Of a DNA stretch of 64,000 bases, positions 1,473 through 63,770 are shown piece by piece. Numbering within the stretch: the stretch's first letter is position 1; the number at the start of each line of letters is the position of its first letter. The stretch lies in assembly GCA_963920575.1 (NCBI GenBank), contig OY986970.1, positions 15,087,588-15,151,587 on the forward strand, read 5' to 3'. The notes under the pieces were generated by a model. That model searched no databases. It worked only from the letters and a program-made list of their open reading frames with translations, and was not told where the DNA came from. The translations under genes and the position numbers were made by a program. Source of the stretch: Narthecium ossifragum (Eukaryota > Streptophyta > Magnoliopsida > Dioscoreales > Nartheciaceae).

Positions 1473-1750
1473 GATCGATCCAACTAGCCTTGGATCGATC
1501 CAAGTCACCCTTGGATCGATCCGGCTAGGGGAAAAGCGAAGATAAAACCCATTACCGATCGATCTGGCTAGCCTCGGATCGATCCAACACACAGTTGGAT
1601 CGATCTGGCTAGTCAAACTCACAGCCATCGTTCAGGGGGCCTCGGATCGATCCAAACTCACATTGGGATCGATCCGACTGCCCCCCCCCCCGGAAGACGA
1701 ACCAACAAGAGTGCGGCTTCGATCGATCCGACAAGCAGCACCGATCGATC
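1473..1750. repeat. Phased GATCGATC palindrome array in S1 (inner cluster)
   Basis: Ten GATCGATC cores start at 1473, 1493, 1514, 1557, 1577, 1598, 1645, 1667, 1721 and 1743. Steps within groups are 20, 21, 20, 21, 22 and 22 bp, and the first gap is 43, or two steps. Several cores have palindromic flanks such as TTGGATCGATCCAA. In the inferred direction of transcription this cluster lies downstream of the promoter. Confidence 0.9.
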
Positions 1751-2319
1751 CCGCTCGACCAAAGGTCGCTCCGAGCAGAGCCTCTGGCCAGCGTCGACGG
1801 CGCCCTTGGCCGGAAAAATAACGCCAATCCTCACCAAACTTGGTGGGCTGGTAGCCAAGAGAAAAGGGAAGCTACTCAAGGCCTCCAAAACCGAGAAAAA
1901 CACCAACGAGACGAGGAAAACCGATGAAGACCAAAACCGGATTCAAGCCACCAAACCATGCCAGAGTCTAAAGTAGGAACCCTACCTCCACAGCACAGCT
2001 TCAACCCAAGAAACAGAGCCTCGGGTCTTCCTCACGCCGCTACGAATCCCGACGAGCCTCCAACCTCCAGAAACGGTGACCGGAGAGGGAAGAACGGCGA
2101 CGAGGAAGCTCTCAGCCGAAACAGGGGAAAGAGAAGCAGAGCCGTGGAAAGAAAAGAGAAGCAGCGAGAGAGAAGGGAAGGAGAGCGGAAGCCAGATAAG
2201 ATTGGGTAAAAGGAGGGGAAGGGGGTAAGCAAAGTCTTCCCTCCCTGACAGGGGAGGTGACGGCCGTCCAGGTCGTCCCGTCGAACTCCATCGACGAGGC
2301 TCTCACTCGGGAAGGGTGA

Positions 2320-2445
2320 GATCGATCCGCACTTGCTTGTCGGATCGATCCGGCTAGCAAGGCCAGATCGATCCGCCCAAGGGGTGCGATCGATCCAACT
2401 TCCTGGCGTTGAACGGGCGATCCTCTTGGCCAGGAAGGATCGATC
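2320..2445. repeat. Phased GATCGATC palindrome array in S1 (promoter-side cluster)
   Basis: Cores start at 2320, 2343, 2366 and 2388 (steps 23, 23, 22), with a half site at 2419 and another full core at 2438. On the minus strand the array precedes a CT-rich stretch (2030-2240) that looks like a transcribed leader. It therefore occupies the promoter side of the LTR. Confidence 0.85.
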
Positions 2446-2656
2446 CCTCTACGCAGAAAGCTAGACTTGGGTTAAAATCTAAACCCAAGCCCGGATCTTT
2501 CGATCCCGGGTCCACCTAGCCATTCTACTCAAACACAAACACCAAAACAAGGCATGTGTGTGCACAAGCGGGTGAAACAAACCAACAAGGCGTAATTTAC
2601 CAAATTGCCCATGCGGTCAACGATGAGCCACAGGAATAGAGGAACGGGTCCTCACA

Positions 2657-2863
2657 ATCCTGAGAGATGTACTTTGATGGAGCTTGCAGGCGCTCAGAAG
2701 CGGGAGCAGGGATAGTCTTTGTTACTCCAACACAAGCCATAATCCCATATTCTTTTGTGCTGACTTCAGCGTCATCCAACAACATGGAGGAATACGAAGC
2801 CCTCGTCATCGGATTGGGGATAGCACTGGAAATAGGGATGGATCCACTTCTCGTTGGCATATA
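2657..2863 (+). pseudogene. Ty3 pol fragment: RNase H N-terminus
   Basis: The conserved RNase H start (MYFDGACRRSEAGAGIVF, then NNMEEYEALVIGL) is readable. The first catalytic Asp is in YFDGA and a Glu is in EEYEA. The codon just before, normally Trp in this family, is TGA at 2661-2663, so the frame would be broken even without S1. After EIGMD at about 2843 the domain ends abruptly and integrase sequence follows. The rest of RNase H and the integrase zinc finger and core have been deleted. Confidence 0.75.
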
Positions 2864-10778: not shown

Positions 10779-10818
10779 CAATTTTGAGTCATTCGCTAGA
10801 CTTCCCGAAAAGGTGCAA

Positions 10819-14228: not shown

Positions 14229-14614
14229 ATACTGTCAACCACACACCACAAAGAAAAGAAAAAGGAAACAGAAGTTTCGGAGGAGAGGAGAAAACCACGG
14301 AATGCCACAACAAAAAGTACAAGTTTAGGTGAAGAAAACGTACCTGAGTGACGCGTGGCCGATCGATCGGGAAGATGGCCGATCGATCGGTAGGCCTTCC
14401 GATCGCTCGCCTGGTAGGCCGATCGGTCGGTAATCCGAGTTGCAGAGAGCTTCATCTAAAAAAAAAACTGTTGCTTTAATGCTACGAAAATTTCGAGAAT
14501 TGTCAGAAAAATTCCTAAAAGTAAACGAAAAATAACTGAAAATAAAAACCTAACTATGCCTAGAAAAAGAGCAAAGAGAAAAATCAGAAACTTCTTTGAA
14601 AAATCAAAATGTTT

Positions 14615-18128: not shown

Positions 18129-18472
18129 GATCGATCCCCCTCGGGATGTTGGATCGATCGGTCTCTTGAAATCTCCAATCTTCTCTTTACGCCCGAGTCC
18201 GATCGATGGACGGATCGATCGAATCTGCTCCTCTAAAAAGCATACGTTCTGTCACCATTTAATTCCCAAGTCCGATCAATCGAATTATGAGTGTTGGATC
18301 GATCGGTTGAGTAAAAATCCGCGGTTTTTGGCTTTTTCCGAGTCCGATCGATCGGACCATTAGTGTCGGATCGATCGGACCCTATAGGAGGGATGGATGG
18401 ATCGATCGGACCATGTTCAGCCAAAAAACACATGTTCTGTCACGATTCTGCGTGGTCCGATCGATCGGCGGA
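18129..18472. repeat. Phased palindrome pairs in Q1
   Basis: Pairs of GATCGATC-type cores start at 18129/18152, 18274/18297 and 18346/18369, each exactly 23 bp apart; a further pair is at 18201/18213 (12 bp). More cores follow near 18401 and 18462. Flanks often extend the palindrome to CCGATCGATCGG. Arms carry occasional changes (GATCAATC at 18274). Confidence 0.9.
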
Positions 18473-20705: not shown

Positions 20706-20773
20706 GACCGATCGGGCTACCAGGCGAGCGATCGGAAGGCCTACCGATCGATCGGCCATCTTCCCGATTGATC
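20706..20773 (+). repeat. Palindrome array in the P2 leader, exact 20-bp step
   Basis: Four GATCGATC-type cores (GACCGATC, GAGCGATC, GATCGATC, GATTGATC) start at 20706, 20726, 20746 and 20766. They lie between primer site and gag start, in the untranslated leader. Confidence 0.85.
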
Positions 20774-20896: not shown

Positions 20897-23800
20897 ATGC
20901 AAGGCAGACGATCCGTACATAATCCGTTGGAACCTTTGGATCTAGAAATAGAGACCACACTTCGAGCTGCTAGAACCTTAACACAAAAATCTCTAAGTAA
21001 ATATCAGGAAGCCATAAGCAACTTGCAATCCTTAATGGCTGAACACGAGGAACATGTCATTGACCCTAATGATAATATGGGTAGGGTTGGAAATGATCAC
21101 AATAATAGAGAAGTCCCAATTAGGAATCACTTCTTACCTGGACCTTATACCTATGCTTCTTGTATCAACCCACCTACCATCAATGCTACCCATTATGAGA
21201 TTAAGCCTAACTGGATTACAGCCTTACCTTCTTTTTATGGGCGTGAGAATGAGGATCCCTATGGACACATTGCTAGCTTTCTTGAAATCCTTTCTATGTT
21301 CAAACTTCAGCATTTTAATGATGATGCCTTTAGACTCAAACTCTTCACTTTTTCTTTGAAAGATAAGGCTAAACATTGGCTCCAAACCTTAGCTCCAAAT
21401 TCGATTTCAACATGGGACCAACTTCAGGATGCTTTCCTTAAGAAATATTTCCCGATCATTAAAACTCAAAATTATCGAACCATGATTATCTCTTTTAAGC
21501 AAAATGAAGATGAGATGTTTCATGAAGCTTGGGAAAGGTTTAAGGATCTTCTTAGAGAGTGTCCCCATCATGAGGTACCTGAGTGGCAGTTAGCCCATTC
21601 ATTTTATAATGGTCTTAATGATCGTTATAGGACAATGGTCGAAGCTTGCTGCGGAGGTGTTGTTCTTAGTAAGCCATGGACTGCCCTTTGGGAAATGTAT
21701 GACAATCTTGTTGAAAATTCACAACACAATGCCTCAGTCTCTAGGAGTCGGTCTACCACTGTTCGTAATTCTCGGGGAATTCATGAAATTTCTGAAGTCC
21801 AAAGTCTCTCCGCACAAGTAGCCCTCCTAACTAAAGACTTAAACCAGTTGAAAACAAGCCAATCTCTTGCTCAACAATTGCCTAATACTTCTCTTGAAAT
21901 CTGTGCCCTTTGCCTTAATTATGGTCATCATATCACTGATTGTCATCTGGCCCCCAATTTCCCTGACTTTGTTCAGGAACAAGTTAATGCAACTTATGAT
22001 CTTTCCAAACCTCAGAACAACCCTTATTCGAATACCTATAATCCAGGTTGGAGAAATCATCCTAATTTTAGTTGGAAGCCACAACCGTCAAGTAACTTTC
22101 AAGGGCAAAACAATCCAGCTAATACTTCTACTCTCAAGTACCCACCTAAATCTTTTGCATATCCAAACCCTGGGTACTCTTCACATTATCCACAGAATAC
22201 CTCTCAACCTCCTCCTCCTGAATCATCAACTGAGCCCACTTTAAATTCAATCATGAGTACACTTTTAGATATGAGAGGTGATTTCAATAGGGACATGTCA
22301 TCCATGAAGGTCGAAATTTCAACTGTCAAAAGTGATGTCTCCTTGTTGACAAACAATTTATCTTCAACGATTCAATCCGTATCAAATTTAGAAAAACAAG
22401 TTGGGCAGCTATCTAACAACATGGCTAGAAGAGAGGAAGGGCACCTACCGAGTCAACCTTTACCCAATCCAAGAGGCCTACACCACGTAGAAAGCCAAAA
22501 TTTTGAAAGTGCCAAGGCCGTAGTGACCCTTAGAAGTGGAAAAACCGTTGACAATCATGTAGGGGAACGAACAAGTACCGATCGATCGGACACAGTTCCG
22601 ATCGATCGGCCGTCAGACGACCGATCGGTATTCCAACCGATCGATCGGACGGACGGTGGTGACCCAGACAACCCACCTGATTCCAACCTCTCTGATTCTA
22701 GGGAATCTAACCCTTTCAAGTATACACCTAGGGTACCCTTTCCTGCGGCCCTTAAGGATCCCTATCCAACTATCAAAGCCCGAAGAGCTGTAGAGGACGC
22801 CCTTGAAATCTTTAAACAGGTCAACATCAACATACCATTACTTCATGCCATTCGTCAAATCCCTTCATATGCCAAATTTTTGAAGGATCTGTGCACTCAT
22901 AAACGCCATACAAAACCCAAAGGGGACAAGAAAATCCTTTTACCTGAACAAGTCAGTTCAATTTTGAAATATGACACGCCACCCAAATTAAAGGACCCTG
23001 GTACCCCTACCATACCCTGTTGCATAGGAGACTACCAGATTGATGGTGCCCTTCTTGACCTTGGAGCCAGTGTTAATATTTTGCCCTACTACCTTTATAA
23101 GGAATTTGGGATGGAAGAGCTTAAACAGACGTCAGTGATCTTGCAATTAGCTGATAGGTCCATTAAGACACCTAGAGGTATAGTAGAAGATGTTTTAGTT
23201 AAAGTGGATAATTTTTTCTTTCCGGTTGACTTTGTTGTCTTAGACATGGAACCTGCTGTCCACTGCAAAAAGACTGTACCAATTATTCTAGGACGTCCGT
23301 TTTTGGCCACTGCTAATGCCTGCATAAATTGTCGAACTGGTGTGATGGATGTTTCTTTTGGTAATATGCATGTTAAATTGAATATCTTTAAGATTGCCTG
23401 TTTGCCTGAGCATGAGAATGAATGCTTTCATGTTGATAGTTTGACAGACTGCTTTGATGATAAGGCTCATGTTATAATGAATGATAAATTGCCTACAATT
23501 TGGGATAAATATGATTCCGACAATGCTGATAATGATGCTAAACTGCATGATGATATATTGTCTACGATTTGGGATGAATATGATTCTGATGATGATGATT
23601 ATGATCTTAAACTGTATGATGATAAATTGCCTATAATTTGGGATGAGTATGATTCTGAGGATGATGATGTTGAATTAAAGAATGAAATTTTGCTTGATAT
23701 TTTGAATGACTATGCTTCTGACTTTGATGAGGATGTTAATCGGGACACTGCACAATCGAAATATGATATCAAAACACACATCTTGCCCGACCAATCACTC

Positions 23801-30436: not shown

Positions 30437-32874
30437 TGTCGCGCCCTGACCCGCGAAAGCCCAACCGGGCCGGGCGACGCGAACCGGAACCTACAAAACG
30501 CGGAAAAGAACGGCAAGGGTTCCCTCTAACCTATTGGTCTCTCTAACAGTTCACCAAAAGCACCTTCAATTAAAACAACAATAATAAGCAAAACCTCGAA
30601 CCACAGATTATAAACTCAAAGTGTTTAATATACAAATCCTCGGAGAGGAGAAGATTCAAAGTACAACATTACTCCCGTAGGAGACTAACTAACATAGGGT
30701 AAAAGCAGTAAACGATCACCACCTCTCAAAGTCCAACAGGCGCTGCCGCACCACCGACCAACTGCCCGGTAGGGGCCACAGAAGAGGAACTGACGCCTGC
30801 ACCTGCAAAACGCAGCCCCGGGTAGGTGTGAGCACTAAGCTTAGTAGGGATCTACACTACGCCACACAGAAGGAAGACGGAAACACAACAGTGTCGCCCT
30901 CAAGCCAGACTCGAGTGAGCTACAATGGTCCCATTACCATTCACTGGTGATCTCTAGGCATATCCAACCATGGTCACCCCAACGAACTGGGCCCATCCTG
31001 GATAAGCCTAGTGTCGCAGGGTTCCAGCTGTGGTCGCCCAACTCGTCATGGGCCCACACTGATGCCCCTACTGGCAGGAACGGACACTGCCCAAAGAATA
31101 AGACCCGTCACCGGTGGCATCCTCAACACCTGACTTGAGGCCGACACGACCTCTACAATCATCAAGCATCAGGTGTACCAGTCCTCTAAGCCTATCATCG
31201 AATAGACTGGACACCACAATTCAAACCGGGTCCAAACTGCCCAACCCCGGTCCTAGGGCTAAGTCCGAGCTTCCAGCCTCGGGACGGCGACCCAAGGATC
31301 ACCCACGCCCTAACCAATGCAACTAATGCACAAATCAACAATGCATGCTATGACATACACAGATAAGAAGCAAAGCATGCAACAGTATGTCAAGCATCAT
31401 ATAAGTCTACTGGATCGCTGCAGCGGTACTACCAACCGCTGCCAGCCGATCCGCAGCGGGTCCCGGCATTACGACGGTACCACGACCATCAACCGCGAAC
31501 TCCTGCAACGGGAAGCAACCCCGAAAACCGCTGATGAACAGTAAACAATATAATATTATATTCAAACACCCAAAACCACCACTTAGGGCCAAATTGATCC
31601 CGTCGATCCGACGTCCAAACGACGTCGGATTCAAGATCCAACTTAGTCACCAGTAGTTGTATATACCAGGATCAACATATCCAAACTCCAGGATCATCCA
31701 ACGGTTGGATTAACGGGAAAACGCTAGTGAAAACCACTAATCAAAACTAACTTTCTAATTAATTGCTGCAACGCAGCCCTCCAGAAAACAATTCATAACA
31801 AATCGTAAACAAATCGGAAAAATACGAAATAAGATGGAATGGAAAGATAACGAAGAGATCTACAACTCTTATGTTTATCTCAACCCAAGATCACGTACAG
31901 GCCGGCCGGACAATACGCCGCAAGCCTGCTGTTCTTCAGGAACAGCAGAAAAACAGAGAAACCGAGCTTAATCATGCATAAAACCTACTCAAATCTCAAC
32001 TGATTAACATGAAACTTAAATTAGTAATTCTAATAAGCATAAAGAATCCAACAAAATAAGGATCAACAAGATCCAACGGCTAGATCACGAGAAACCCATT
32101 AAAGAACATCAGTAGGTAGAAGAACCTACCCAACAGCGCATTCCTCGGTTGATCCCTCGCAAACCAGTCACCAACACGACTCCAAACCACCTCAACAACC
32201 TTCCTCTCGTCGCCACGAATCCAACAAGCTTTGGACCGTCCAAATCGGTGGCCGGAGGAGGGAGAACGGAAGAAAAGAAGCTCGCCGGCGGAAGAAGAGA
32301 AGAAACAGAGCACCGCGGGAAAGAAGAGAAAGAAGGAAGAAGAAGAGAGGAGAAGAGAAGGGAAGAAGGGGGAGGAAAGCCTGGGGGAAAGCCGGCGAAG
32401 GCGGGGAAAAGCTGGGGGAGGGGAGAGAAAGTCCTCCCCTTCTGACAAGTGAGAGCGATGGCCGGCTGCCGTCATCGCTGAAGAGAAAAAAAGCCACCGA
32501 CTGTTTGATCACGAGTCCGATCGATCGCTCCAATGAGTGATCGATCGCTCTCGAGCCGCAAACAGCCCAAAGACCTTCTGCACTAAGCGATCGATCTCCA
32601 AAGCATGTCAGATCGATCTGGCTAGCAAGGCCACATCGATCTCATTAGCAATCCAGATCGATCTCCTTCGCCCAGAAAGGCAAACTTGGGCTAAAACACA
32701 AGCCCAAGCTCAGATCTTCCGATCTCGGGTTCACCTAGCCATTCTAACAAACACTAACACAAACAAGGCCAGTGTGTGCACACGCGGGTGTGAAACAAAC
32801 CAACAAGGCGCAATTTACCAAATTGCCCTTGCGGTCTACAACGAGCCACAGGAGTAGAGGGGCAGGTCCTCACA
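30437..32874 (-). mobile_element. Solo LTR S3
   Basis: TGTCGCGCCCTGACCC...GGTCCTCACA, with exact GCTCC duplications at 30432-30436 and 32875-32879. Phased palindromes at 32519-32663; purine tract 32270-32440 (a CT-rich leader on the minus strand). The frames in that tract are low-complexity. No coding sequence. Confidence 0.88.
32519..32663. repeat. Phased GATCGATC array in S3
   Basis: Cores start at 32519, 32539, 32589, 32611, 32634 (CATCGATC) and 32656; steps within groups are 20, 22, 23 and 22. On the minus strand it lies upstream of the CT-rich leader. Confidence 0.88.
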
Positions 32875-35148: not shown

Positions 35149-35884
35149 TATCCCCCCTCAATCCCTAGAAACAGTCCTATGTATAGCTTTAAGTGTCTCC
35201 ATCCTCGGATTAGATTTGAGCCGTTAATTTTCTTCACTGCGAAGGTAAGACCGATCCTTCCATAGGTGTAAGATCGATCCTTTGATATCAACATCTTCAA
35301 TTTCTGTCTACGCCCGAGGAAGATCGACCATTTGAAAGAAGAATGATCGATCCTTCTCTGTAGGATGGATAATAGGATGGATCCTTCGATAGGAGAAAGA
35401 TCGATCCTTTGCATTGGCGATTTTCTCAATCTTCTCGAGTGAAAGGAGGATCGATCCTTCTATGATCATCTGAAAAGTATGCGTTCTGTCAGGTCTGTCT
35501 GCATAAAAGGATCGATCCTTTTAGGGAAAATGATCGATCTTTCTTTCCTGAGTATTTACTGTTTTGCCATCCAGACTGCGTCATTGTTACTAAAATTGCC
35601 ATAACTTCCTCTAGAAAACTCGGAATCACGAACCGTAAAATTATCCAGAAACTAAACTTCAAGAGCTTTCCAACCATATATGGCACATCATCTAGTTCTT
35701 TATCAGCTGGTACAGTTTAATCTTTAAAGTTGATCCATATACTCTTTTCAGCTTCTTTTCGAACTTAAGGACTTCAATTGCATCCTAAATCAAAATATAA
35801 GAATAATGAGTGTATTTAGGTACCAAATAAGCACAGGAGACTAAGTATTAATGGATAGAAATATAACATTATGCATCATCATCA
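35149..35884 (-). repeat. Q2 3' LTR (truncated)
   Basis: On the minus strand starts TGATGATGATGCATAATG, as in Q3. Palindromes at 35249-35520 lie upstream of a TATA-like CTATACATAG (35177-35186). The rest is lost at the junction with the S-type LTR. Confidence 0.8.
35249..35520. repeat. Phased GATCGATC array in Q2 LTR
   Basis: Core pairs at 35249/35272, 35322/35345 and 35378/35399 (steps 23, 23, 21), with further cores near 35450, 35508 and 35531. Most are flanked to read GGATCGATCC or AGGATCGATCCTT. Confidence 0.85.
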
Positions 35885-42770: not shown

Positions 42771-44554
42771 TCTTCTTTGCATTTTGACTAGTTGTTTAAA
42801 AAAAAATATTCTTTACATGCTTGCTTGTTTTCGAATTATTTACATGTTTGATTTTGATGTGTGTCAGTTGCTCTTTGATTCATTGTTTGATAATGTCGTC
42901 ATTGTCGTTGTTGAATCTTTGTGTTGATCGTTGAATTGGCTGGATTGGCGTGTTCTTGTTGTGGTATTTTGATGCCTAGGGAGCCTAGTATTCATGTATG
43001 AGGTGCTAGAGGTGAAGTTCTAGGTTTTCAGCCTAGTTTTGTGTTGTTGTGCGCAAAAGATCGATCTTCCGAGTGTTGAAGATCGATCTTTTGTTGGGTC
43101 ATTTTTAATAGCTGAGCTTGGACAAATATGATCGATCTTCAATCTTCAATCCCTTGAAGATCGATAATGTTTGTACATTTGCTGCTACAGAGAGTGGGTA
43201 TAGAGAAGATCGATTGTCGCGCCCCGACCCGCGTAGGCCCAACCGGGCCGGGCGACGCGAACCAGAACCTAACCTATTGCGAAAATTTTGGCGAGGTTTT
43301 CCTCTAATCGTAGTGGTCTCCCTAGCAATTCATAATCATTATGTATTATACAAACAATCACAAACCTCAAAACGCTGAACTGGATATAATACAAATCCTC
43401 AAAACAGGGAAATTATACATTTAACACTCCCGTAGGAGACTATCTATAACAAAAGGGTAAAACTGAGATCGCCGCTCCTCAAGTACTACCAGACGCCGCC
43501 ACGTCACCAAACACCTGCCCGGTAAGGGCGACCGAAGAAATGCTAGCGCCAGCACCTGCAAAACGCAGCCCGGGTAGGAGTGAGCACTAAGCTCAGTAGG
43601 GATACTACACTACGACACTCACAAGGGAGGGAACACAACAGTGTTACCCCCAAGCAAAGACTGGGTGTACACAGGGGTCCCATAACCCCATCACGTGTCC
43701 CTGAAAGGTGGCCTCAGTCATGGTCCCCAGCCGAACTGGTCACATGCTGGGTCGCCCTCAGCAAGGTAGGAAACCGGCACAGTAATCTCACTAGCAGGAA
43801 ACCAACACTGCTAGGCGGGCAACCAACACCGCTGAGTAGGCACAGCCTCTATCAAAGAGACAGTGAACCGGACACCGGCTACACCTCAACACTCGGCTCG
43901 AGGCCGACACGACCTCTAAACATCAAACCACATGTATTCTGGTCATCTAACCCTATCATCAAAAAATGACGGAACACTACAAATCGAGTCCTGGACCACG
44001 CTACCCGCAACGGTCCTAGAGCTAAATCCGGACTACCCGAAAGCCCCGGATCGGCGATCAACCCATCACCAACGTCCTACACAGATGCAACTAATCCACA
44101 AGGCAATGCATGTTATGAGCACACGCAATAATATACAGATAAACATGCAACAGTATGTGATTATATATCAAACAGGGTCTGGGCACGGCACCCTACCGGC
44201 CCGGGGTGGTGAACAGGTAAATAAGGTCTAGGAGCTGTTACAGTGGTACCACCACCAACTGTCAGCAGTCCACCACAACACCTGCATCGGGAAGCAGCCC
44301 CGCAAACAACAGCTCACAGATATCAAAGATAAAGCCCTCGGCGCACGCTGACATGGAAGGCTAAGGAAAGCTGTAGGGCTACCCGCCCGTTTATTCTAAA
44401 CATCCCGGGAGTCATCACTCCCCCGGTTCACCATTGCCCCTATTATAGGGCTAACATGCTTAAATAAATATACAAGATATAAGACAGTAAAGAAAATGAT
44501 ACATGCAAAGCCTCGCGAGCAAAACAAGATGAATTTCTCTCTCTGCCGTAGACG

Positions 44555-44887
44555 GATCGATCATTCTCCCCAAGGGCCGATCGATCCTACTAATGGCAGA
44601 GAACAATCTCTCCATATCGTGTCGAGTAAGATCGATCCATCCCCCCAAGGGTCGATCGATCTTACTCGTGATAGGGAACATCCTCACTGCCGTGCCAAGG
44701 AGGATCGATCCTTACCCCCAAGGGACGATTGATCCTACTCGCGACGAGGGGGATCCCATGCTACCCAAGGCACAAGGATCGATCGTCCTCACTCGAGAAT
44801 GATCGATCCTGCTCGGGTTTAGCATGACCAACAAAGAAGGATCGATCCCTCTCACAGAGGGATCGATCGCGATGGGTTCTCCGGCAA
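44555..44887. repeat. Phased palindrome pairs in S7 (inner cluster)
   Basis: Pairs at 44555/44579, 44630/44654 and 44703/44727, each exactly 24 bp apart with CCCCCAAGGG between the members; further cores follow to 44871. Pair two reads GTAAGATCGATC...GATCGATCTTAC, an inverted repeat overall. Confidence 0.9.
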
Positions 44888-45213
44888 CCCTCCGGCGAGA
44901 AATACCATCGGAAAACTCAACTAAATCCCACCAAAACCTGGGATCTAGTAGTACGAAGGACCACGAGTCCAAAACCGGTGGAAATACTACAATCTAACAA
45001 GTGTATATCAAGATCTAAGCAAAAGATCACAGACAACCGGAATTTTTTTTCCAAAAACCTGGAAGAATTGTAGGTAGGATCCCTACCTATGCAATAGCAA
45101 CTTCAATCCCAGCTGCTAGGCCTTGTATCGTCCACAACCTCTTCGAAATCCAGAAAATCTCAGCTCAAGAACTCGAATTTCAAAAGAGATTCAAGGAAGA
45201 AGGTTACGTCCGT

Positions 45214-45220
45214 TTTATAG
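45214..45220 (-). promoter_or_regulatory. TATA box of S7
   Basis: CTATAAA on the minus strand. The first palindrome is about 22 bp upstream of it. Confidence 0.6.
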
Positions 45221-45242
45221 ACAAACGAACCGACCTAAGCGC

Positions 45243-45357
45243 GATCGATCCGTCCAAGAGAGCGATCGATCCGTCCCAAGAGGAACGATCGATCCTTCTC
45301 AATGATCCGACTTCCTGGAATTGACCGATCGATCCTTCTAGCAAGGAAGGATCGATC
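45243..45357. repeat. Phased GATCGATC array in S7 (promoter-side cluster)
   Basis: Cores at 45243, 45264, 45287, 45327 and 45350; steps 21, 23, 40 and 23. Directly upstream of the minus-strand TATA box. Confidence 0.88.
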
Positions 45358-46433
45358 CGTCTTTCGCAGGAAGCTAGACTTGGGCTAAAACTTAAGCCCA
45401 AGCCCGGATCTTTTGATCCCGGGTCCCACTAACCATTCTAGCCAAACATTACCACAAACATGGTCAGTGTGTGCCCACGCGGGTGTGAAACTAGCAGACA
45501 AGACGTAATTTACCAAATTCCCCTTGCGGTCCACGAAGAGCCACAGGAGTAGAGGGACGGGTCCTCACATCGATCCTCACCATAGTGAAGTTTTTATACT
45601 CATTGCTCCACTTTTGTACATGGTTGACATTTTTGGTTGGAGATCGACCCTCACCATGTTGATTTTGGCTTTGGGGGTGTGCCCCGTGTGTATGTGGCAC
45701 TATATATGTGGATGTGGATGTACTGTGGATGTATATTATCAAAATTTGTAGCCCCTGTGCTTATTGAATACATAGAGGAGATGCTGCCCAATGTTTCTCT
45801 AAGTTTTCATGCTTCTTCTATTCTTTACTTCTTTGCCATCATGGGGTATTTCTTCTACTATGTTCCAGGGTCTCTATACTATGGTATGCATATTGTTGCG
45901 ATGCATTACGACATCACACATATACTTGGTTTTCATGCTTCACCTTGCTCAGCAAATACGGTTTTACCTATCACCAAGGTTACAGTTTCATTAGAAGCAT
46001 CATCAGGTTATCTCTATCATTTACCTTATTTCCGTGCTTGAGGACAATCCCGCTTAAGTTTGGGGTAACATTCATAAATTTCATGCTCATGCTTAATTTT
46101 TTGATAATCGACATTATACATCCCTTGACATATGGTAAAAGAATGAAATTATGATATGAGTTGATGAAGATGCATGTTTTAGAAATTTCTCTTATGAATT
46201 ATTCAAAATTTATGTCATATAAGATTTAGTAAATTTAGCTATGCATGGCATTATATGTGTTGGTAAGTGTAAGACTTGAAATTAGATTCTAAGCCTGAAA
46301 CAAAGATAGATTTATAAGTTTAGATTCTAAGCCTGAAACAAAGATAGATTTATAATTTTATGACATGTCGCAGAAGATAGATGAACACATGTAATTTTCT
46401 GTTCGCAACAAGTATATGTGTTGGTAAGTGTAA

Positions 46434-48552: not shown

Positions 48553-48845
48553 GATCGATCCGACACCCCGGTGGGATCGATCCGACTATGCAGAATCGTG
48601 ACAGAACATATATTTTTCGGCTGAACATGGTCCGATCGATCCATTCATCCATCCTAAGGTGTCCGATCGATCCGACACCTAAAGTTCGATCGATCGGACT
48701 CAAATAGCCAGAGAAGGTGGATTTTTACGCATCCGATCGATCCAGCACCCATAGATCGATCGATCGGACTCGGGCATAACTAGAAATTGAAGATTTTTAA
48801 TGAGACCGATCGATCCGACACCCCGAAAAGGATCGATCGGACTTT
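48553..48845. repeat. Phased palindrome pairs in Q3 LTR
   Basis: Pairs at 48553/48575, 48665/48688, 48735/48758 and 48808/48831, spaced 22, 23, 23 and 23 bp, plus a single core at 48634. The 3' LTR keeps the same set at about 53131-53420 with point changes, while spacing is retained. Confidence 0.9.
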
Positions 48846-48900: not shown

Positions 48901-48910
48901 CTATAAATAG
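48901..48910 (+). promoter_or_regulatory. TATA box of Q3 5' LTR
   Basis: CTATAAATAG, about 60 bp after the last palindrome. The 3' LTR has CTATAAATTG at 53481-53490. Confidence 0.65.
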
Positions 48911-49807
48911 GACTCTTTCTAGGGTTTGAGGGGGGATTCTTGGACACTTTTGGCTGCTCTTTCTCCTCCTTTATATTTTTTCTAGGTTTTATCTTGTTTA
49001 TTGGAATCTTTTGAGGATTGTTCTCAATGGCCCTGCGTGGCTAAATCTTGATCCTTGGTCGAGGAGACTGAAACCTCGGAATCAATGAAACTGTGAGATC
49101 TAATTTATTTTTATTGTTCAGTTTATAGATGAGTATTGAATGTTCTTCTGTTATTAAATATTCATGATTGTCTTGTCTAATTGCTAGGAGCGCTACTAGT
49201 TTATTATTCATTGCGATCTACTGCTAGGTTGGATATCAAATCCGGAATTGTTTGATCCCTCTAATCTACGAAGCAACTAGGGTTTAATAATCTACTGCGT
49301 TTAAGAGATTGTTAGGTCTTAGGAAGAATATTTGACTAGATTAAATGCAACCGCTTGTGCTTGTGTTGTTTAGCTTCATCGATCTCCCTATTCTTAACGC
49401 TGCTACTAAATTAAATCTACAGCGCTTGTCTTACGTTGTCTAGTAGTTAGGGTTGATTAGATCGCTTGTTTCTAATTAATTATGATCGAGGAGAGCTTCG
49501 AATTTAATTCGGACGGTGAATATTCATGGTATGAATTGATTGATACTTGCATCTATGATCAGTTGTTGGATTCCGATGGTGGATGTTGACTCAAACCAAG
49601 GTTTGTTCTCTTAATTCAACTTGTTTTCTTCGTTTTAAATTATTTCTTTATTGGTTTTCCTCACGTTTAACACCCCTCCATCTTTGTTCACTAAGCACAA
49701 AACTAGGCTAAACACTCTTCGTGGGATCGACTCGTACTCGCACTACTACATTTATTTTAACGAGTATTGGTTTTATTTTTGAGTGCCTGCAACAACACAT
49801 CAAATTT

Positions 49808-49825
49808 TGGCGCCGTTGCCGGGGA
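49808..49825 (+). other. Q3 primer-binding site, tRNA-Asp type
   Basis: TGGCGCCGTTGCCGGGGA, a full match to what plant tRNA-Asp would pair with. Starts six bases after the 5' LTR. Confidence 0.88.
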
Positions 49826-52771: not shown

Positions 52772-54384
52772 AAGTGTGGGGGAATTTGATGATAATGCAT
52801 AATGTTATATTTTTATCCCTTAATACTTAGTCTCCTGTACTTATTTAGTTCCTAAATATACTCATTATTCTTATATTTTGATTTAGGATGCAATTGAAGT
52901 CCTTAAATCGAAAAGAAGCTGAAAAGAGTGCATGGATCATCTTTAAAGATTAATCTGTACCTGCTCATGAAGAACCAGATGATGTGCCATATATGGTTCG
53001 AAACCTCTTGAAGTCTAGTTTCTGGGGAATTTTACAGTTCGTGATTCTGAGTTTCCTAGAGAAAGTTATGGCAATTTTAGTACCGATGGCGCAGTCTAGA
53101 TGGCAGAACAGTAAATATGCTGGAAAGTTGGATCGATCCGACACCCTGGTGGGATCGATCCGACTATGCAGAATCGTGACAGAACATATATTTTTCGGCT
53201 GAACATGGTCCGATCGATCCATCCATTCATCCTAAGGGCTCCGATCGATCCGACACCTAAAGTTCGATCGATCCGACTCAAAAATAGCCAGAGAAGGTGG
53301 ATTTTTACGCATTCGATCGATCCAGCACCCATAGATCGATCGATCGGACTCGGGCGTAACTAGAAATTGAAGATTTTTAATGAGATCGATCGATCTGACA
53401 CCCCGAGATGGATCGATCGGACTTTCCCAGTCAAGAAAATCAACGATTGTGATCTAATCCGAGGGTGGATACACTTAAGGCTATAAATTGGACTCTTTCT
53501 AGGGTTTGAGGGGGGATTCTTGGACACTTTTGGCTGCTCTTTCTCCTCCTTTATATTTTTTCTAGGTTTTATCTTGTTTATTGGAATCTTTTGAGGATTG
53601 TTCTCGATGGCCCTGCGTAGCTAAATCTTAATCCTTGGTCGAGGAGACTGAAACCTCGGAATCAATGAAACTGTGAGATCTAATTTATTTTTATTGTTCA
53701 GTTTATAGATGAGTATTGAATGTTGTTCTGTTATTAAATATTCATGATTGTCTTGTCTAATTGCTAGGAGCGGTACTAGTTTATTATTCATTGCGATCTA
53801 CTATTAGGTTGGATATCAAATCCGGAATTGTTTGATCCCTCTAATCTACGAAGCAACTGGGGTTTAATAATCTACTGCGTTTCAGAGATTGTTAGGTCTT
53901 AGGAAGAATATTTGACTAGATTAAATGCAACCGCTTGTGCTTGTGTTGTTTAGCTTCATCGATCTCCCTATTCTTAACGCTGCTACTAGATTAAATCTAC
54001 AGCGCTTGTCTTAGGTTGTCTAGTAGTTAGGGTTGATTAGATCGCTTGCTTGTTTCTAATTAACTATGATCGAGGAGAGCTTCGAATTTAATTCGGACGG
54101 TGAATATTCATGGTATGAATTGATTGATACTTGCATCTATGATCAGTTGTTGGATTCCGATGGTGGATGTTGACTCAGACCAAGGTTGGTTCTCTTGATT
54201 TAACTTATTTCTTTGTTTTAGATTATTTCTTTATTGTTTTTCCTCACGTTTAAAGCCCCCCATCTTTGTTCACTAAGCACAAAACTAGGCTAAACACTCT
54301 TCGTGGGATCGACTCGTACTCGCACTACTACATTTATTTTAACGAGTATTGGTTTTATTTTTGAGTGCCTGCGACAGCACATCA
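52772..54384 (+). repeat. Q3 polypurine tract and 3' LTR
   Basis: AAGTGTGGGGGAATT (52772-52786), then LTR 52787-54384 ending GACAGCACATCA before the CCTCT target copy. Confidence 0.9.
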
Positions 54385-58473: not shown

Positions 58474-58805
58474 CGGTTGATGTGACGGACAATGCATGGA
58501 TCGACCGTGGGGTTTGGCGGTTGATGCGTGGATTGACCGCGAAAGTTTTTCTTGGGAATATAGGCTGACGGTCGATGTGACGGTCGATGGACCGATCGAC
58601 CGTGGCCTATGTGACTTGGCTCAAAGGAGCGACGGTCGATCGGTGCATCGACCGTGGGAAGCGGTTTTCTAGACAGAGGTTGACGGACGATGTCACAGTC
58701 GATGGGACGGTCGACCGTGAGGCTTGATGGTCGATAGGTGGATCGACCGTGGCTCATGGAAAGCCTGGCGGACGATGTCATGGACGATGCGACGGTCGAC
58801 CGTGA
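58474..58805. repeat. GGTCGA array with 12-bp step in the copia solo LTR
   Basis: Cores at 58474, 58487 and 58499, then 58570 and 58582, and further blocks at 58632-58660, 58681-58712 and 58769-58801. Blocks read GACGGTCGATGTGACGGTCG and close with ATCGACCGTGG. Lies 85 bp and more upstream of the TATA box. Confidence 0.85.
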
Positions 58806-58888: not shown

Positions 58889-58896
58889 TATAAAAG
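58889..58896 (+). promoter_or_regulatory. TATA box of the copia solo LTR
   Basis: TATAAAAG followed by AGAAAGTCCAGCAAAC. The palindrome array lies immediately upstream. Confidence 0.65.
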
Positions 58897-59390
58897 AGAA
58901 AGTCCAGCAAACTTGCCAAAGACTTAGAGGGAGCTAAGAGATTATTGTAATCATATTCTAGCAAGTTTCTTTCGCTTATTAGTGAGCTAAACCTTTGTAA
59001 AACTACTTCAAGTGTGAAGTAGACATTAAGAGAAATATCCAAGAGAGAGCTTGAAGAGATTATATGGTTGCCAAGCACCCGTAAGCTTGGTGGATAGGTT
59101 GCCAAGCACCCGGAAGCTTGGTGGACAACTTGTAAGAGGTCTTGCAAGTAGTGGAACCCCATGGAGTGCCTTGAGAGAGTGGATGTAGGCAAGGTTTGCC
59201 GAACCACTATAAAATCTGGTGCAATCTCTCTATCTCTCATCTCTTATCATCCTTGCTTTAATATAGATTTTCTTCTCCTATCATTGCAAGCATATTATTT
59301 GATCAGACTCCTCCTACTCAGATTTGCTTAATTGATTTCATTATTTAAAGCCTAAGATAAACCCCACCCCCCCCCCCTCTTAGAGCTTCA

Positions 59391-60224
59391 GCACGGACAC
59401 AACAAGTTTGATTGTCGTCAACTCAAGAAGCCTACAAAGGAGTTTTAGAAAAAAAAAAAGCAATGATGGCTACTTGGGAAGAAAGTGATGTGGAGACCTC
59501 ATCCGATGAAGAAGAACAAGAGGTAGCCAACATATGCTTGATGGCACACGGAGATGAGGAAGAAGAGGAAAATGAGGTAGAAGATGAGCTTGCATTTGAT
59601 AAACTATTTGATACTTACCATGCCTTAGCTAGGGATTTTAACTTTCCTAAAAAGAAATACTATGCTACTTGTAAGGACTTGAAGAAAGTAAAAGAAGAAA
59701 AATTAGATGCCATGCATAGGATTGGAACCTTAGAAAAAGAAAACAAATGCATGCTAGACAACAACTCTTGTGACACACTTCAGGAGGAACTCAAGGACAC
59801 TCAATATGAGCTCATCATATTGAAAAACACAAACTATGATATGCAAAGGGAACTAATCTACTTGAGGAAATCCAAGAGAGATCTCACTCTTGAGGTTGAT
59901 GACTTAAAAATCACTCAATCTAAATTCGTGAAGAGTAGAGATAAGCTAGATGAGATCCTTTATAGCAAAAGGAGCTCTTTAAACAAGGAAGGAATTCGCT
60001 ACAACCCTAGGAAGATGAACAACCAAAAGAAGACTAACTTTGTTAAAGCTTCTTCTCATCCTCCTAAGGTAGCACAAGCACCCACTTGCCACTATTGTTG
60101 CACGACAGGTCACATTGCACCTAGTTGTTATCTCATGAAACATGCTAGTGCTAAAACCTTTTTGACACCTAAGCATGCTACATCTACTTTTATTTCTAGA
60201 ACTAATGCTAAAGGACCCAAATAG
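59391..60224 (+). pseudogene. Copia gag, C-terminal coiled-coil part
   Basis: Continues the knuckle after the solo LTR (HGHNKFDC) and then shifts frame at the A-run 59450-59460. The open frame continues MMATWEESDVETSSDEEEQE, an acidic stretch, a long heptad-like helix (about residues 80-190 of the frame) and a second CCHC knuckle CHYCCTTGHIAPSC. It ends NAKGPK with TAG where relatives read on into IWIPK, which indeed follows at 60225. Typical of SIRE gag. Confidence 0.8.
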
Positions 60225-60869: not shown

Positions 60870-61492
60870 CTCATATGGTTTTGTTTTAGTAGATGACTAC
60901 ACTAGATACACATGGGTGATTTTCCGTGCACACAAAAGATGAAGTCTTTGAGGAATTCACCAACTTTTGTAGAAGAGTCCAAAATGAAAAAGGTATTATC
61001 ATTACATGCATTAGAAGTGACCATGAAGGAGAATTCAAGAACTCCCATCTAGCAAAGTTTTGCAATGACAACGGGATTGCCCATAACTTCTTATCACCAA
61101 GAACCCCTCAAAAAAATCGTGTTGTTGAAAGGAAAAATTGGACCCTACAAGATTGGGCTAGAACTCTATTATGTGAGAATAATCATCCTAAATACTTTTG
61201 GACCGAAGCGATTAATACTTCTTGCCATGTGATCAATTTAGTCGCATTGAGACATATTTTGAAGAAAACTCCCTATGAGCTTTGGAAAGGAAGAATTCTG
61301 AATATTAGTTACTTTAGAGCCTTTGGTTGCAAGTGCTTTGTCTTGAACAATGACAAGGATAATCTTAGAAAATTTGAAGCTAGATCCGATGAAGGAGTTT
61401 TCCTTGGATACTCGAAGAGAAGCAAAACTTATAGAATATTCAATAAGAGGACCTCGGTGGTTGAAGAATCAATGCATGTTACATTTGATTAA
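60870..61492 (+). pseudogene. Copia integrase core
   Basis: The first catalytic Asp is in VDDYTRYTWV (60890-60919); the frame then shifts. The second frame (60926-61492) has the second Asp in IRSDHEGEFKN, the catalytic Glu in VVERKNWTLQ, and the C-terminal region FRAFGCKCFVLNN...GVFLGYSKRSKTYR. All three catalytic residues are readable but in two frames. Confidence 0.8.
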
Positions 61493-62369
61493 ATGATTAT
61501 AGGTCCTAGTAAAATTAATGATGAAGATGATGAATTTCCTAATGACAAATCAAAAGATCTAGTAGATGAGACCCAAAACGATGTTGAAGAATTGAATGAT
61601 AGATTTGAGAAAATCCCTTGAAATTACTCCTAGTGATCAACATCGTGATTTGCCAAAAGATTGGAAATATGCATCCTCACAACCAAAGGATTTGATCATT
61701 GGTGAACCATTAAAAGGAATCTAAACTAGATCTTCATTAAATGCATGTGTCAATCTAGCCTTCCTATCTCAAATTGAGCCCAAAACGATTGAGGAAGCAC
61801 TAGAGGATGATCATTAGATCTTAGCAACACAAGAAGAGTTAAATCAATTTGAAAGAAATCAAGTTTGGAACTTGGTACCTAGACCTAGTGATCATCCCGT
61901 CATTGACACTAAATGGGTGTTTAGAAATAAAATGGATGAATCGGGAATAATCACAAGGAATAAAGATAGACTTGTTGCAATAGGCTTCAATCAACAAGAA
62001 GGAATTGATTTTGATGAAACTTTTGCACCGGTAGCTAGACTTGAGGCAATAAGACTAGTTCTAGCTTTTGCATCTTACAAAGATTTCAAGTTATATCAAA
62101 TTGATGTCAAAAGTGCATTTTTAAATGGTTTCTTAAAGGAAGAAGTTTATGTTGAACAACCCTCCGATTTTGAGGATCACAAGTTAGGGGATCATGTATT
62201 CGAGCTCACTAAAGTCTTATATGGATTGAAACAAGCTCCTAGAGCTTGGTATGAAAGTTTTAGCAAATTCTTGATGGATAATGATTTTTATAGAGGAAAG
62301 ATTGATACTACTCTTTTTACAAAATCAAAAGGAGAGGGCCTTTTATTAGTTCAAATGAATTTGAAATGA
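61493..62369 (+). pseudogene. Copia reverse transcriptase, N-terminal part
   Basis: 61493-61870 is the linker, with several stops and the motif [20 protein letters not shown]. The open frame 61872-62369 has [25 protein letters not shown] with the first catalytic Asp, and [13 protein letters not shown]. It breaks off where YVDD should follow: an inserted copy of downstream sequence (62357-62387) shifts the frame. Confidence 0.85.
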
Positions 62370-62511
62370 GTTTGATCGGTGAACTAAATTTATGTGGATG
62401 ATATCATCTTTGGATCTTCTAATGAAAAGCTATGTGAAGAATTTACCTCTTGCATGCAAAATGAATTTGAAATGAGTTTGATGGGTGAACTAAATTATTT
62501 ATGTGGATAAT
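62354..62511 (+). repeat. Short direct duplication at the RT active site
   Basis: AAATGAATTTGAAATGAGTT and the following ATSGGTGAACTAAATT occur at 62354-62391 and at 62459-62496. The second is the normal location (relatives code for MSLMGEL here). The first is inserted just before TTTATGTGGATGATATC, the YVDD codons. After the second copy TTTATGTGGATAATA stands where relatives encode a different sequence. Confidence 0.8.
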
Positions 62512-63344
62512 AAATCATGCAAACTCGAGGAGGGATCTTTGTTAGTCAAGCCAAATACACTAGAGACCTACTCAAGAAGTATGATTTTGTCCAATCAAAA
62601 ATTTATATAACCCTATGTGTACAACATTCAAATTAGACAAGGATGAAGATGGGAAACCCGTTTATCAAATATCTTATAGAGAGATGATTGGTTCTTTACT
62701 CTATTTGACCGCCAGTAGACCGGACATCATGTTTAGTGTTTGCCGTTGTGCTAGATATCAATCTTATCCTAAGTAATCTCATTTGGTTGCGGTCAATAGG
62801 ATCTTTAGCTATCTAATAGGAACCCAAAACTATGGTTTGTGGTATCCTAGAAGATCATCTTTTGATCTAATTGGCTACTCCGATGCGGATTTTGTCGGAT
62901 GTAGGCTTGAAAGAAAAAGCACAAGTGGTACATGTCACTTTCTTGGGCATGCACTTGTTTTTTGCTTCTCCAAGAAACAAAACTCAGTTGCTTTATCCAC
63001 CGCCGAATTACTTTGGATACATCGTGGCTGGCAGTTGTTGTGCACAATTACTTTGGATGAAAATCCAATTGATAGATTACAACATACATTTAAACAAAAT
63101 GCCCATTAGATGTGACAACACTAGTGCCATAAGCCTATCCAATAATCCCATCTTACATTCTAGAATAAAGCAGATAGAAATTCGACATCATTTCCTTCGT
63201 GATCACACACAAAAAGGAGATATTGCACTTGAATTTGTTAGCACGAAGCATCAAATTGCGGATATTCTGACCAAACCCTTGAGTGAAGACAGGTTTCCAT
63301 ATCTACTAAGGGAGCTTGAGATGTCCAATGGATGTCCAAAATGA
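62370..63344 (+). pseudogene. Copia RT C-terminus and RNase H
   Basis: After the duplication: YVDDIIFGSSNEKL and SQAKYTRDLLKKYDF in successive frames, with stops at 62508 and beyond. RNase H runs over two overlapping frames (62783-63109 and 62871-63344): DLIGYSDADFVGC, RKSTSGTCHFLG, ALSTAE, IRCDNTSAI and HIEIRHHF-like IEIRHHFLRD, ending LTKPLSEDRF. Catalytic acidic residues are readable. Frame break at about 63010. Confidence 0.8.
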
Positions 63345-63770
63345 AAAGCTAAAAGCAAAAGGTATAGTCAGCTCTTTATCTGCTTTTCATATCATATCCT
63401 ACTTGAGTGCTAATTTTTTGTAAGTTGAGTGATTTTCATGATTAATGAGTTGTTTTTAGCTCATAATATTTAGCTATACATGCAAAGTTCTATGATGTTT
63501 TGATTTAAAAATGATTTGTTAATTGAATTTCAAATTTCATTTTCTGGAACTCACGGTCGACCGTCAGGAAGTCTAGATCGACCATGAGTACAGTTTTGTT
63601 TTCACATATCGCGCTTGAGGGTCGATTTCCAACTTTTGAGGATCAACCGTGAGATTTTTATTATACACAAATCGTGCGTGACGGTCGACCGCCAACTTCT
63701 GAGGGTCGACCGCCATGGATCGTGTGACAACTTAAGTGAGGGGTTTTTAGTCATTTTCACGTCTCCCCAT
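63345..63770 (+). other. Post-pol region of the copia element with paired GGTCGACC sites
   Basis: No reading frame. Three pairs of palindromes stand at 63555/63576, 63620/63641 and 63683/63704, each exactly 21 bp apart. They read GGTCGACC or one-base variants and precede a TATA box at 63771. Confidence 0.8.

What the first reader, a model, noticed from the sequence alone, without database searches (positions are those of the whole stretch)
1473..63711. Arrays of GATCGATC palindromes phased at two helical turns in unrelated retrotransposon families
Seen: the same dyad core recurs with start-to-start steps of 20-24 bp in S1 (20,21,20,21,22,22 and 23,23,22), S3 (20,22,23,22), S7 (24,24,24 and 21,23,23), Q1 (23,23,23), Q2 (23,23,21), Q3 (22,23,23,23), P2 leader (20,20,20) and the copia post-pol region (21,21,21). 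The elements belong to Ty3 and Ty1 and share little else. Flanking bases vary but usually keep the dyad (TTGGATCGATCCAA, CCGATCGATCGG, AAGATCGATCTT, GGTCGACC). Sequence between cores is not conserved across families. Inference: sites for a dimeric DNA-binding protein spaced on one face of the helix, acquired by or exchanged among many elements of this genome. I know of no described system of this kind.
Basis: partly seen in the sequence, partly recalled or inferred. Interest (0 to 1): 0.92.

Follow-up and report, generated by a model that had tools for sequence, protein, structure and literature searches.

The report
Paired palindrome arrays in retrotransposon promoters
In the bog asphodel genome, unrelated jumping genes carry the same tiny DNA palindrome in pairs about two helix turns apart, often beside their promoters, and the bases next to it change together across a whole array, as if the arrays track changing control proteins.

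Summary
The window holds 82 GATCGATC against about 1 expected. Its genome matches Narthecium ossifragum by matK. It has 77,874 GATCGATC pairs at 16-24 bp but 4,788 at 25-33 bp; reversed-pattern controls 27 and 56. In 20 loci of 10 kb the mode is 22 bp, with a 71-bp super-period. Arrays lie in unrelated LTRs: an Athila-like Ty3 type and a 2.2-2.4-kb type of undetermined lineage; some sit at fixed distances from TATA. A copia family has the variant GGTCGACC before an extra 3' ORF. New here: each array keeps one flank 'dialect' (GATC|CTT, CAA, TCC, TTC, ATC, GGAC) on both half-sites. Between homologous LTRs flanks switch together at all dyads, while the core is kept more than other sequence and linkers stay alignable. 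Best reading: promoter-proximal sites for dimeric DNA-binding factors whose specificity changed repeatedly. Closest known: Sirevirus 'repeated motif' boxes, palindromes upstream of TATA and of the env-like gene (PMC2829016), which that paper calls Sirevirus-specific. So a new variant of a known kind. Binding is untested; the factor is unknown.

The parts
48553..48838 (+). Array of 10 GATCGATC (GGAC/CGAC dialect) in U3 of the 5' LTR of element D (48209-49802, TGATGAG..ACATCA)
48902..48911 (+). TATAAATAGG box 63 bp after the last dyad of the D array
49808..49824 (+). Primer-binding site TGGCGCCGTTGCCGGGG of element D (tRNA-Asp label recalled)
53131..53418 (+). The same array in the 3' LTR of D (52787-54384; LTRs 96% identical)
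18129..18466 (-). Array of 8 dyads (GGAC dialect) in a D-type LTR piece (18004-18697), TATA at 18064 (-)
35272..35539 (-). Array of 6 dyads (CTT dialect) in a D-type LTR (35150-35885); an integrase piece similar to a Citrus Ty3 polyprotein lies at 37281-37817 (-)
43215..45569 (-). S-type LTR (TGTGAGGACC..GGGGCGCGACA) between 5-bp repeats ATCGA
45243..45357 (-). S array 1 (5 dyads), upstream of TATA at 45219 (-), 24 bp away
44555..44868 (-). S array 2 (9 dyads, steps mostly 24 and 49-51 bp) downstream of that TATA
2320..2445 (-). S array 1 in the S LTR that starts at 2656 (-)
1473..1750 (-). Second array (10 dyads, CAA dialect, pair steps 20-22) downstream in the same LTR
32519..32663 (-). Array of 5 dyads in the S-type LTR that starts at 32874 (-)
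43059..43137 (.). Three dyads (ATCGATCTT type) of a sequence into which the S LTR 43215-45569 is inserted
14361..14388 (-). Two exact dyads (CCGATCGATCGG) in the leader of element A (6990-16072), between LTR and gag; two degenerate ones next to them
20746..20753 (+). Exact dyad in the leader of element B (19070-28392), with degenerate neighbours at 20 bp
22580..22646 (+). Three dyads inside the gag-protease ORF of B, in two reading frames, so not a peptide repeat
63555..63711 (+). GGTCGACC/GATCGACC dyads (steps 21,44,63,21 counting one weaker site) of the copia family, after pol and before the place where related copies have an extra 3' ORF
63771..63777 (+). TATAAAA 59 bp after the last dyad: putative internal promoter
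58499..58801 (+). GRTCGAYC dyads in a roughly 1-kb segment that interrupts the copia gag (58376-59411) and is absent from L017 and L022
39073..39364 (.). GRTCGAYC/GATCGATC array with a 104-bp tandem unit and GACAGAG (39195, 39299)

Best explanation
These are promoter-proximal arrays of binding sites for dimeric sequence-specific DNA-binding factors, built into LTR retrotransposons of several lineages. The functional unit is two palindromes 20-23 bp (about two helix turns) apart, repeated every 63-73 bp, upstream of TATA (58-65 or 22-24 bp from the last dyad where measured) and in some families also downstream of it or before an internal ORF. The inner bases (GATC|GATC) are common to the factors. 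The next 3-4 bases on each side are a family-specific half-site, and whole arrays have switched from one version to another as the factor used changed. Shown: spacing, location, symmetry, family-specific flanks, core retention, concerted switching. Inferred: that a protein binds, that it acts on transcription or silencing, and that it co-evolves. Undecided: whether host paralogues or element-encoded proteins are the factors. I lean to factors shared between lineages, because the same dialects (CTT, TCC, TTC, CAA) occur in both main LTR types.
For: Spacing peak far above within-array chance and genome-wide. Half-sites: in 49 distinct arrays of 4-13 dyads, flank identity within an array is .537 against .313 (maximum .323 of 500) when half-sites are shuffled among arrays (first run with duplicates, 52 arrays.535 and .310). 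Genome-wide the symmetric CTT site AAGGATCGATCCTT has 4,237 copies and the mixed CTT/CAA site AAGGATCGATCCAA 168. Concerted switching in D-type LTRs: 545 orthologous dyads in 135 of 253 pairs (those passing the filters) have flank (+-1-3) identity .502 against .696 for the rest; within-pair variance .0209 against .0550 (minimum .0484 of 1,000) permuted; orthologous linkers across dialects .66 identical (n=14), paralogous linkers .32 (n=57). Core kept: in 160 D pairs .570 of 2,108 aligned dyads are exact in both, against .220 for 8-mers of the remaining sequence. TATA distance: 13 of 18 D arrays 61-65 bp and 5 of 18 85-87 bp; copia internal promoter 58-62 bp in 8 of 8 copies with an array; S type 22-24 bp in 4 arrays.
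Against: No binding, expression or chromatin data. LTR pairs share ancestry, so permutation values are not probabilities. The pattern that collected the D set required a TATA box. Only 14 of 32 arrays have a TATA match within 160 bp pointing away (random .21), and five S first arrays (W 2320, W 32519, L009, L010, L023 2918) have none. In single comparisons the core is hardly better kept than far sequence: D5/L35 .87 against .81, L18/L35 .75 against .73. S1b/S45 flanks (.65) are only a little below far (.74). The A/B family has dyads in leader and gag and none in its LTR. The link of spacing to dialect is weak. Facing inner flanks of pairs show a small extra complementarity (+.050.024-.077) and flanks within a dyad a slight deficit (-.024, -.039 to -.009) that a simple dimer-site model does not need.
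Confidence: 0.66

Rival explanations
1. Element-encoded regulator: the factor is made by retroelements, for instance the PF20167 (Transposase_32) protein encoded 3' of pol in the copia family from its own array-bearing internal promoter, and binds LTR and internal arrays, as Tas does in foamy viruses (recalled) or VANC in VANDAL transposons. Other elements use it, or relatives of it, in trans.
For: Among 10 loci fetched around PF20167 matches, 5 (L072, L073, L075, L076, L077) have paired GRTCGAYC-type dyads upstream of the ORF; those, the window, L017 and L022 have a TATA-like box 58-62 bp after the last dyad. The copia LTR of L022 also has TCGA dyads. Eight loci without a stop in the domain were fetched; 6 of them have the 409-aa ORF (the other two, L083 and L084, are other lineages), with a basic stretch, the domain, and a C-terminal helix modelled at low confidence. 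VANC motifs form tandem repeats that co-evolve with VANC (PMC5735166, abstract and passages).
Against: No DNA-binding fold shown: the model is poor (pLDDT 36.9), no sequence match in the PDB, no homologue found by search. No PF20167 ORF was linked to GATCGATC arrays; L070 has one GATCGATC and two scattered dyads only. The other 5 of 10 loci lack a paired array. Dialects shared between lineages argue against one factor per family.
Confidence: 0.2
2. RNA or cruciform hairpins: the paired palindromes are selected as stem-loops (GATCGATC-N-GATCGATC) for packaging, RNA processing or siRNA production.
For: All 28 adjacent window pairs tested fold, several with 11-13 bp stems; facing inner flanks are more complementary to their own partner than to others of the same array (+.050.024-.077; no such effect across the long gaps or within dyads).
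Against: The effect is small, and any two copies of a palindrome can pair. Isolated dyads have symmetric flanks as well (.46 against cross-array .30, 67 dyads). D arrays lie upstream of TATA, so they are not at the start of the transcript (U3 is copied only at its 3' end). TATA distance and helical spacing are not expected of RNA.
Confidence: 0.1
3. Mutational tandem-repeat turnover: arrays are satellites made by slippage or unequal exchange, and flanks are alike within an array by descent only.
For: 71-bp tandem units exist (73-bp unit at 44555); plant Ty3 elements of the Retand lineage often carry family-specific tandem repeats (PMC11963269, passages).
Against: Orthologous linkers across dialects are .66 identical, paralogous linkers .32: linkers were not homogenised while flanks were. 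The core is the same in unrelated LTRs.
Confidence: 0.12
4. Assembly artefact: GATCGATC is also the ligation junction of DpnII-type Hi-C or Chicago libraries.
For: The junction sequence of a Chicago library is GATCGATC (PMC5288721, passage); this assembly used Arima Hi-C (PMC12351241, passages).
Against: Contigs are PacBio HiFi; Hi-C was used for phasing and scaffolding. Dyads are at homologous places in diverged LTRs and inside an open gag ORF. The GGTCGACC variant cannot arise so.
Confidence: 0.01

Closest known systems
Sirevirus repeated-motif (RM) boxes (Bousios et al. 2010, PMC2829016; abstract and passages read)
   Same: Palindromic short motifs, at least 8 and up to 32 copies per element, in the LTR upstream of TATA and again 5' of the env-like gene; [quoted passage not shown] different palindrome per family; one of them (Vitis) is CGGTCGACCG as in the copia family here, another (Tnd-1) ACAATCGATTGT with the ATCGAT core.
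   Different: There in 13 Ty1/copia Sireviruses, described as Sirevirus-specific and absent from classic copia elements; all but Tnd-1 have a CGG-CCG core. Here GATCGATC arrays are in Ty3-type elements (D, A/B) and in an LTR type of undetermined lineage (S). In the passages seen I found no mention of pairing at two turns or of concerted flank switching.
VANC anti-silencing proteins and their motif arrays in VANDAL transposons of Arabidopsis (PMC5735166; abstract and passages read)
   Same: Short motif repeated in noncoding parts of a transposon, differing between related families, explained by co-evolution with a binding protein; VANC6 motifs also occur in an unrelated element (AT9TSD1).
   Different: DNA transposons; motifs YAGTATTAY and AGTTGTCC are not palindromes; the protein is known and binding was tested; the motifs are said to have evolved by tandem repeat formation.
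Foamy virus Tas with its LTR and internal promoter (recalled, no call)
   Same: 3' ORF from an internal promoter with sites for a regulator also present in the LTR: the layout of the copia family here.
   Different: Vertebrate retrovirus; no sequence link; regulation not shown here.
gypsy (mdg4) insulator of Drosophila with about 12 Su(Hw) sites (recalled, no call)
   Same: Array of sites for a host protein in retrotransposon noncoding DNA.
   Different: Zinc-finger sites without dyads, downstream of the LTR, one family.
HIP1 palindrome GCGATCGC of cyanobacteria (recalled, no call)
   Same: One 8-bp palindrome in very many copies in a genome.
   Different: Dispersed through the genome, no arrays at promoters.

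Membership tests
Sirevirus RM box (for the GATCGATC arrays) | Palindromic motif in at least 8 copies per element | tested here: inconclusive
   Arrays have 4-13 exact dyads; the S LTR at 43215-45569 has 5 + 9 and each D LTR 10-11, but other LTRs in the set have fewer than 8 exact dyads
Sirevirus RM box (for the GATCGATC arrays) | Cluster in the LTR a short distance upstream of TATA | tested here: met
   D type 61-65 or 85-87 bp in the 18 of 19 loci that have dyads (set chosen for a TATA box); S type 22-24 bp in 4 arrays; 14 of 32 arrays overall within 160 bp
Sirevirus RM box (for the GATCGATC arrays) | Core CGG-CCG | tested here: not met
   Core is GATCGATC with changing flanks
Sirevirus RM box (for the GATCGATC arrays) | Host element is a Ty1/copia Sirevirus | tested here: not met
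   D: primer site TGGCGCCGTTGCCGGGG and, beside L35, an integrase piece 68% identical to a Citrus Ty3 polyprotein. A/B: gag of family PF03732. For the S type the lineage was not determined (primer site TGGTATCAGAGC at one LTR end)
Sirevirus RM box (for the GGTCGACC copia family) | CGG-CCG palindromes in LTR and 5' of the env-like ORF | tested here: met
   5 of 10 PF20167 loci lack them
Sirevirus RM box (for the GGTCGACC copia family) | Sirevirus lineage by reverse transcriptase, multiple PPTs, integrase signal | not tested
   No tree was built; only copia-type gag (PF14223) and pol similarity between copies
VANC-type target array | Element-encoded protein that binds the motif and removes DNA methylation | not testable with these tools
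   Needs protein and methylation experiments
VANC-type target array | Motif differs between related families in concert | tested here: met

The most novel reading that the evidence does not exclude
A shared regulatory network of retroelements: one family of dimeric regulators, encoded at least in part by retroelements (candidate: the 3' PF20167 ORF made from its own array-bearing internal promoter), recognises paired palindromes with a common core. It has split into about ten half-site specificities, and unrelated Ty1 and Ty3 elements tune whole arrays to one of them, switching by concerted flank change.
Probability: 0.18. Interest if true: 0.92.

Novelty: new variant of a known kind. Interest (0 to 1): 0.7.

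Why it matters
Tens of thousands of paired sites in homologous promoter copies of one genome hold a readable record of how a regulatory site changed specificity: conserved core, concerted flanks, and the same versions in unrelated elements. That makes a hard question (how cis sites and their factor co-evolve, and who encodes the factor) directly testable by DAP-seq and reporters. It extends palindromic repeated-motif boxes, described as Sirevirus-specific, to Ty3-type elements. It may also matter in practice: software that trims Hi-C reads at GATCGATC would cut real sequence in this genome.

Tried and rejected
Structure of the 409-aa ORF: model too poor to use, so no fold search was made. Homologues of the 3' ORF piece L017:3104-3991: none; PDB: none. 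Literature: 'GATCGATC' with 'retrotransposon' (17 papers listed; passages opened for three: a Chicago junction, a primer, a made-up example) and with 'transcription factor, motif, binding' (20 of 107 listed); 'short palindrom' with LTR retrotransposon (listing); Athila with palindromic or repeated motif (listing); Sirevirus palindromes (listing); VANDAL and anti-silencing (listing); Ogre, Athila and tandem repeats (listing); 'putative plant transposon protein' with retrotransposon (none). I saw no report of GATCGATC arrays in Ty3 elements in these listings; most listed papers were not opened, and subscription papers are not held. Within-dyad symmetry beyond the array dialect: not found (-0.007; -0.024), so left and right flanks are like two draws from one family half-site. 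Spacing against dialect over 71 arrays: R2 .274 against .130 permuted, below the 99.9th percentile (.349), so only suggestive; within S p=.04, within D p=.21. A profile grouped by dialect agrees with concerted switching but is circular. Never answered: TTGGATCGATCCAA, the S-block pattern (60, 64, 71, 73, 75, 77, 81, 83, 85, 87, 89), a GGTCGACC pair pattern (105, 107, 112). Rows dropped before counts: the second D LTR (53131-53411) in most flank tests; L002-L008 (overlapping L001); identical flank strings. In some searches the locus L044 was still counted although it lies inside L009; one search repeats the counts of 63 and 67 without it and without the second D LTR (49 arrays; 40 of 96 pairs).

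Full report
WHAT IS THERE. The window is plant DNA made mostly of nested LTR retrotransposons. It lies in a 379.4-Mb assembly of 150 contigs. A maturase K piece of that assembly is 100% identical over 95% of the query to Narthecium ossifragum, next best 89%. The published genome has 378.87 Mb and 13 chromosomes, assembled from PacBio HiFi reads (PMC12351241, start of abstract in a listing and passages). GATCGATC occurs 82 times in the window against about one expected.

THE SPACING IS GENOME-WIDE. There are 77,874 matches with two GATCGATC 16-24 bp apart, 4,788 with 25-33 bp, and 27 and 56 for the reversed patterns. In 20 loci of 10 kb at round coordinates (200 kb) there are 142 dyads, in 14 of 20 loci, against 10 of the reversed word CTAGCTAG; pair distances peak at 22 (33 pairs), then 71 (16), 23 (11), and 21, 63 and 93 (9 each), 49 (8). 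Steps of 19-24 are 58 against 12.4 expected by placing dyads at random within the same 21 arrays, maximum 24 in 2,000 trials. The basic unit is a pair about two turns apart, repeated at about 71 bp.

WHERE THE ARRAYS SIT. D type: element 48209-54384, LTR 1.6 kb, primer site TGGCGCCGTTGCCGGGG, array in U3, TATA 63 bp after the last dyad. Its homologue at 35150-35885 lies near an integrase piece 68% identical to a Citrus Ty3 polyprotein; the name Athila-like is recalled. A pattern for the block between array and TATA finds 953 + 971 copies. Of 19 such loci read, 18 have dyads, and the last dyad ends 61-65 bp (13) or 85-87 bp (5) before TATA; the pattern itself demanded a TATA box. S type: LTR TGTGAGGACC..GGGGCGCGACA of 2.2-2.4 kb. 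One S-type LTR end (L018, 81-88% identical to the window copy) is followed directly by TGGTATCAGAGC; its pol was not identified, so its lineage is open. In four S arrays TATA lies 22-24 bp after the first array; five other S first arrays have none. A second array lies downstream. In a clustering of 52 arrays by sequence outside the dyads, 32 fall in the S cluster, 8 in the D cluster, then clusters of 4 and 3, and 5 single arrays (two S arrays counted twice). S, D and copia LTRs show no BLAST similarity to each other but one 52-bp match between S and D at the arrays. Over all 32 arrays of the window and the sample, 14 have TATA within 160 bp pointing away, random expectation .21.

THE COPIA FAMILY. 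The window's copia element has GGTCGACC-type dyads after pol with steps 21, 44, 63, 21 and TATA at 63771. The window ends where, in the related loci L017 and L022, an extra ORF with Pfam domain PF20167 follows. PF20167 gives 1,028 candidates in the genome, of which 150 were scored and listed. Of 10 loci around such matches, 5 have the same paired dyads upstream and 5 do not. In all 8 copies with an array (window, L017, L022 and these 5) the last dyad ends 58-62 bp before a TATA-like box, weak in L073. Of 8 further loci, picked because the domain had no stop, 6 have the 409-aa ORF and 2 are other lineages. This layout is that of Sirevirus RM boxes before the env-like gene.

DIALECTS. In arrays of four or more dyads the bases next to GATC tend to be the same on both sides and along the array, but differ between arrays: GGAC or CGAC, CTT or CTA, CAA, TCC, TTC or TTT, ATC or ATT, CNTC; some arrays are mixed. 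In 49 distinct arrays within-array identity over four flank bases is .537; shuffled .313, maximum .323 of 500. CTT and TTC arrays occur in both LTR types, as do TCC and CAA. Genome-wide AAGGATCGATCCTT has 4,237 copies, mixed AAGGATCGATCCAA 168; the count for TTGGATCGATCCAA did not complete. Within a dyad the two flanks are no more alike than any two flanks of the array: each half-site is a draw from a family half-site, as for a symmetric dimer.

CONCERTED SWITCHING. In homologous LTRs of different dialect the linkers align but the flanks are near random. Identity of core, +-1-2 bases and far sequence: D5/L35 .87.31.81; L18/L35 .75.28.73; S45/S32 .90.25.80; S1b/S32 .97.38.76; S1b/S45 .95.65.74; same-dialect D5/L18 .95.81.75. 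So the flank drop is clear in four of five, and the core excess in three of five, different-dialect comparisons. Pooled over 160 D pairs.570 of 2,108 aligned dyads are exact in both, against .220 of 8-mers of the remaining sequence. Over 96 homologous pairs of distinct arrays, flank identity ranges from .08 to 1.0 and is more than .25 below the rest in 40. In the D set (23 sequences; 135 of 253 pairs pass the filters; 545 orthologous dyads; pairs not independent) mean flank identity is .502 against .696, and flank change is all-or-none per pair: within-pair variance .0209 against .0550 permuted, minimum .0484. Orthologous linkers across dialects are .66 identical (n=14), paralogous linkers within an array .32 (n=57), so whole repeat units were not exchanged.

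HAIRPIN QUESTION. All 28 adjacent window pairs fold as hairpins, as any two copies of a palindrome would. Facing inner flanks match their own partner slightly more than other partners of the same array: +.050 (.024 to .077) over 182 pairs; across long gaps -.017 (-.055 to .022); within dyads -.024 (-.039 to -.009). So there is weak coupling between the two sites of a pair. I take it as a sign that the pair is one unit, or of mutation by template switching in quasi-palindromes; it is too small to make RNA hairpins the main reading.

OTHER MOTIF. The long gaps carry GACAGA in 18 of 89, shuffled expectation 1.1, at offset 8-10 or 18-22 from a dyad; several of these gaps are from homologous LTRs. 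The copia LTR of L022 has GACAGAGG as well.

VERDICT. The best reading is an array of sites for dimeric factors in retroelement promoters. Sirevirus RM boxes are the closest known thing and probably the same kind of device. Their presence in Ty3-type elements with another core, the pairing at two turns and the concerted change of half-sites are what is new here. Binding, activity and the identity of the factor are open. On re-checking I dropped the claim that the S type is Ty3, removed duplicates and added the weaker comparisons; the odds did not need to change.

Noticed in passing
window 43215-45569: The S LTR is flanked by 5-bp repeats ATCGA, i.e. it is inserted into a GATCGATC-type dyad of another array (43059-43209); whether elements prefer dyads as targets was not tested (the S LTR in L023 has TTAAG).
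   Followed up: partly
window 6990-16072 (-) and 19070-28392 (+): Two related elements with LTR pairs (97% identical) and gag-protease but no reverse transcriptase or integrase similarity found inside with four Ty3 polyproteins: probably non-autonomous.
   Followed up: partly
window 48209-54384: Element D is inserted (repeat CCTCT) into an LTR of another element (47418-48208 + 54385-54978).
   Followed up: no
L017:3104-3991, L022:72-1388, L078-L082, L085: Copia family with a 409-aa 3' ORF: basic N-terminus, PF20167, C-terminal helix; intact copies exist, with a putative internal promoter before the ORF.
   Followed up: partly
39195, 39299, 48600, 53178, 58672 and gaps of many arrays: GACAGA(G) recurs in the long gaps between dyad pairs of unrelated families.
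   Followed up: partly
genome-wide: GATCGATC is the junction sequence of DpnII-type proximity ligation; trimming reads at it would cut genuine repeats in this species.
   Followed up: no
window 58376-59411: A roughly 1-kb segment with its own GRTCGAYC dyads and TATA (58889) interrupts the copia gag and is absent from L017 and L022; copia sequence 57115-57254 is repeated at 59095-59232.
   Followed up: partly
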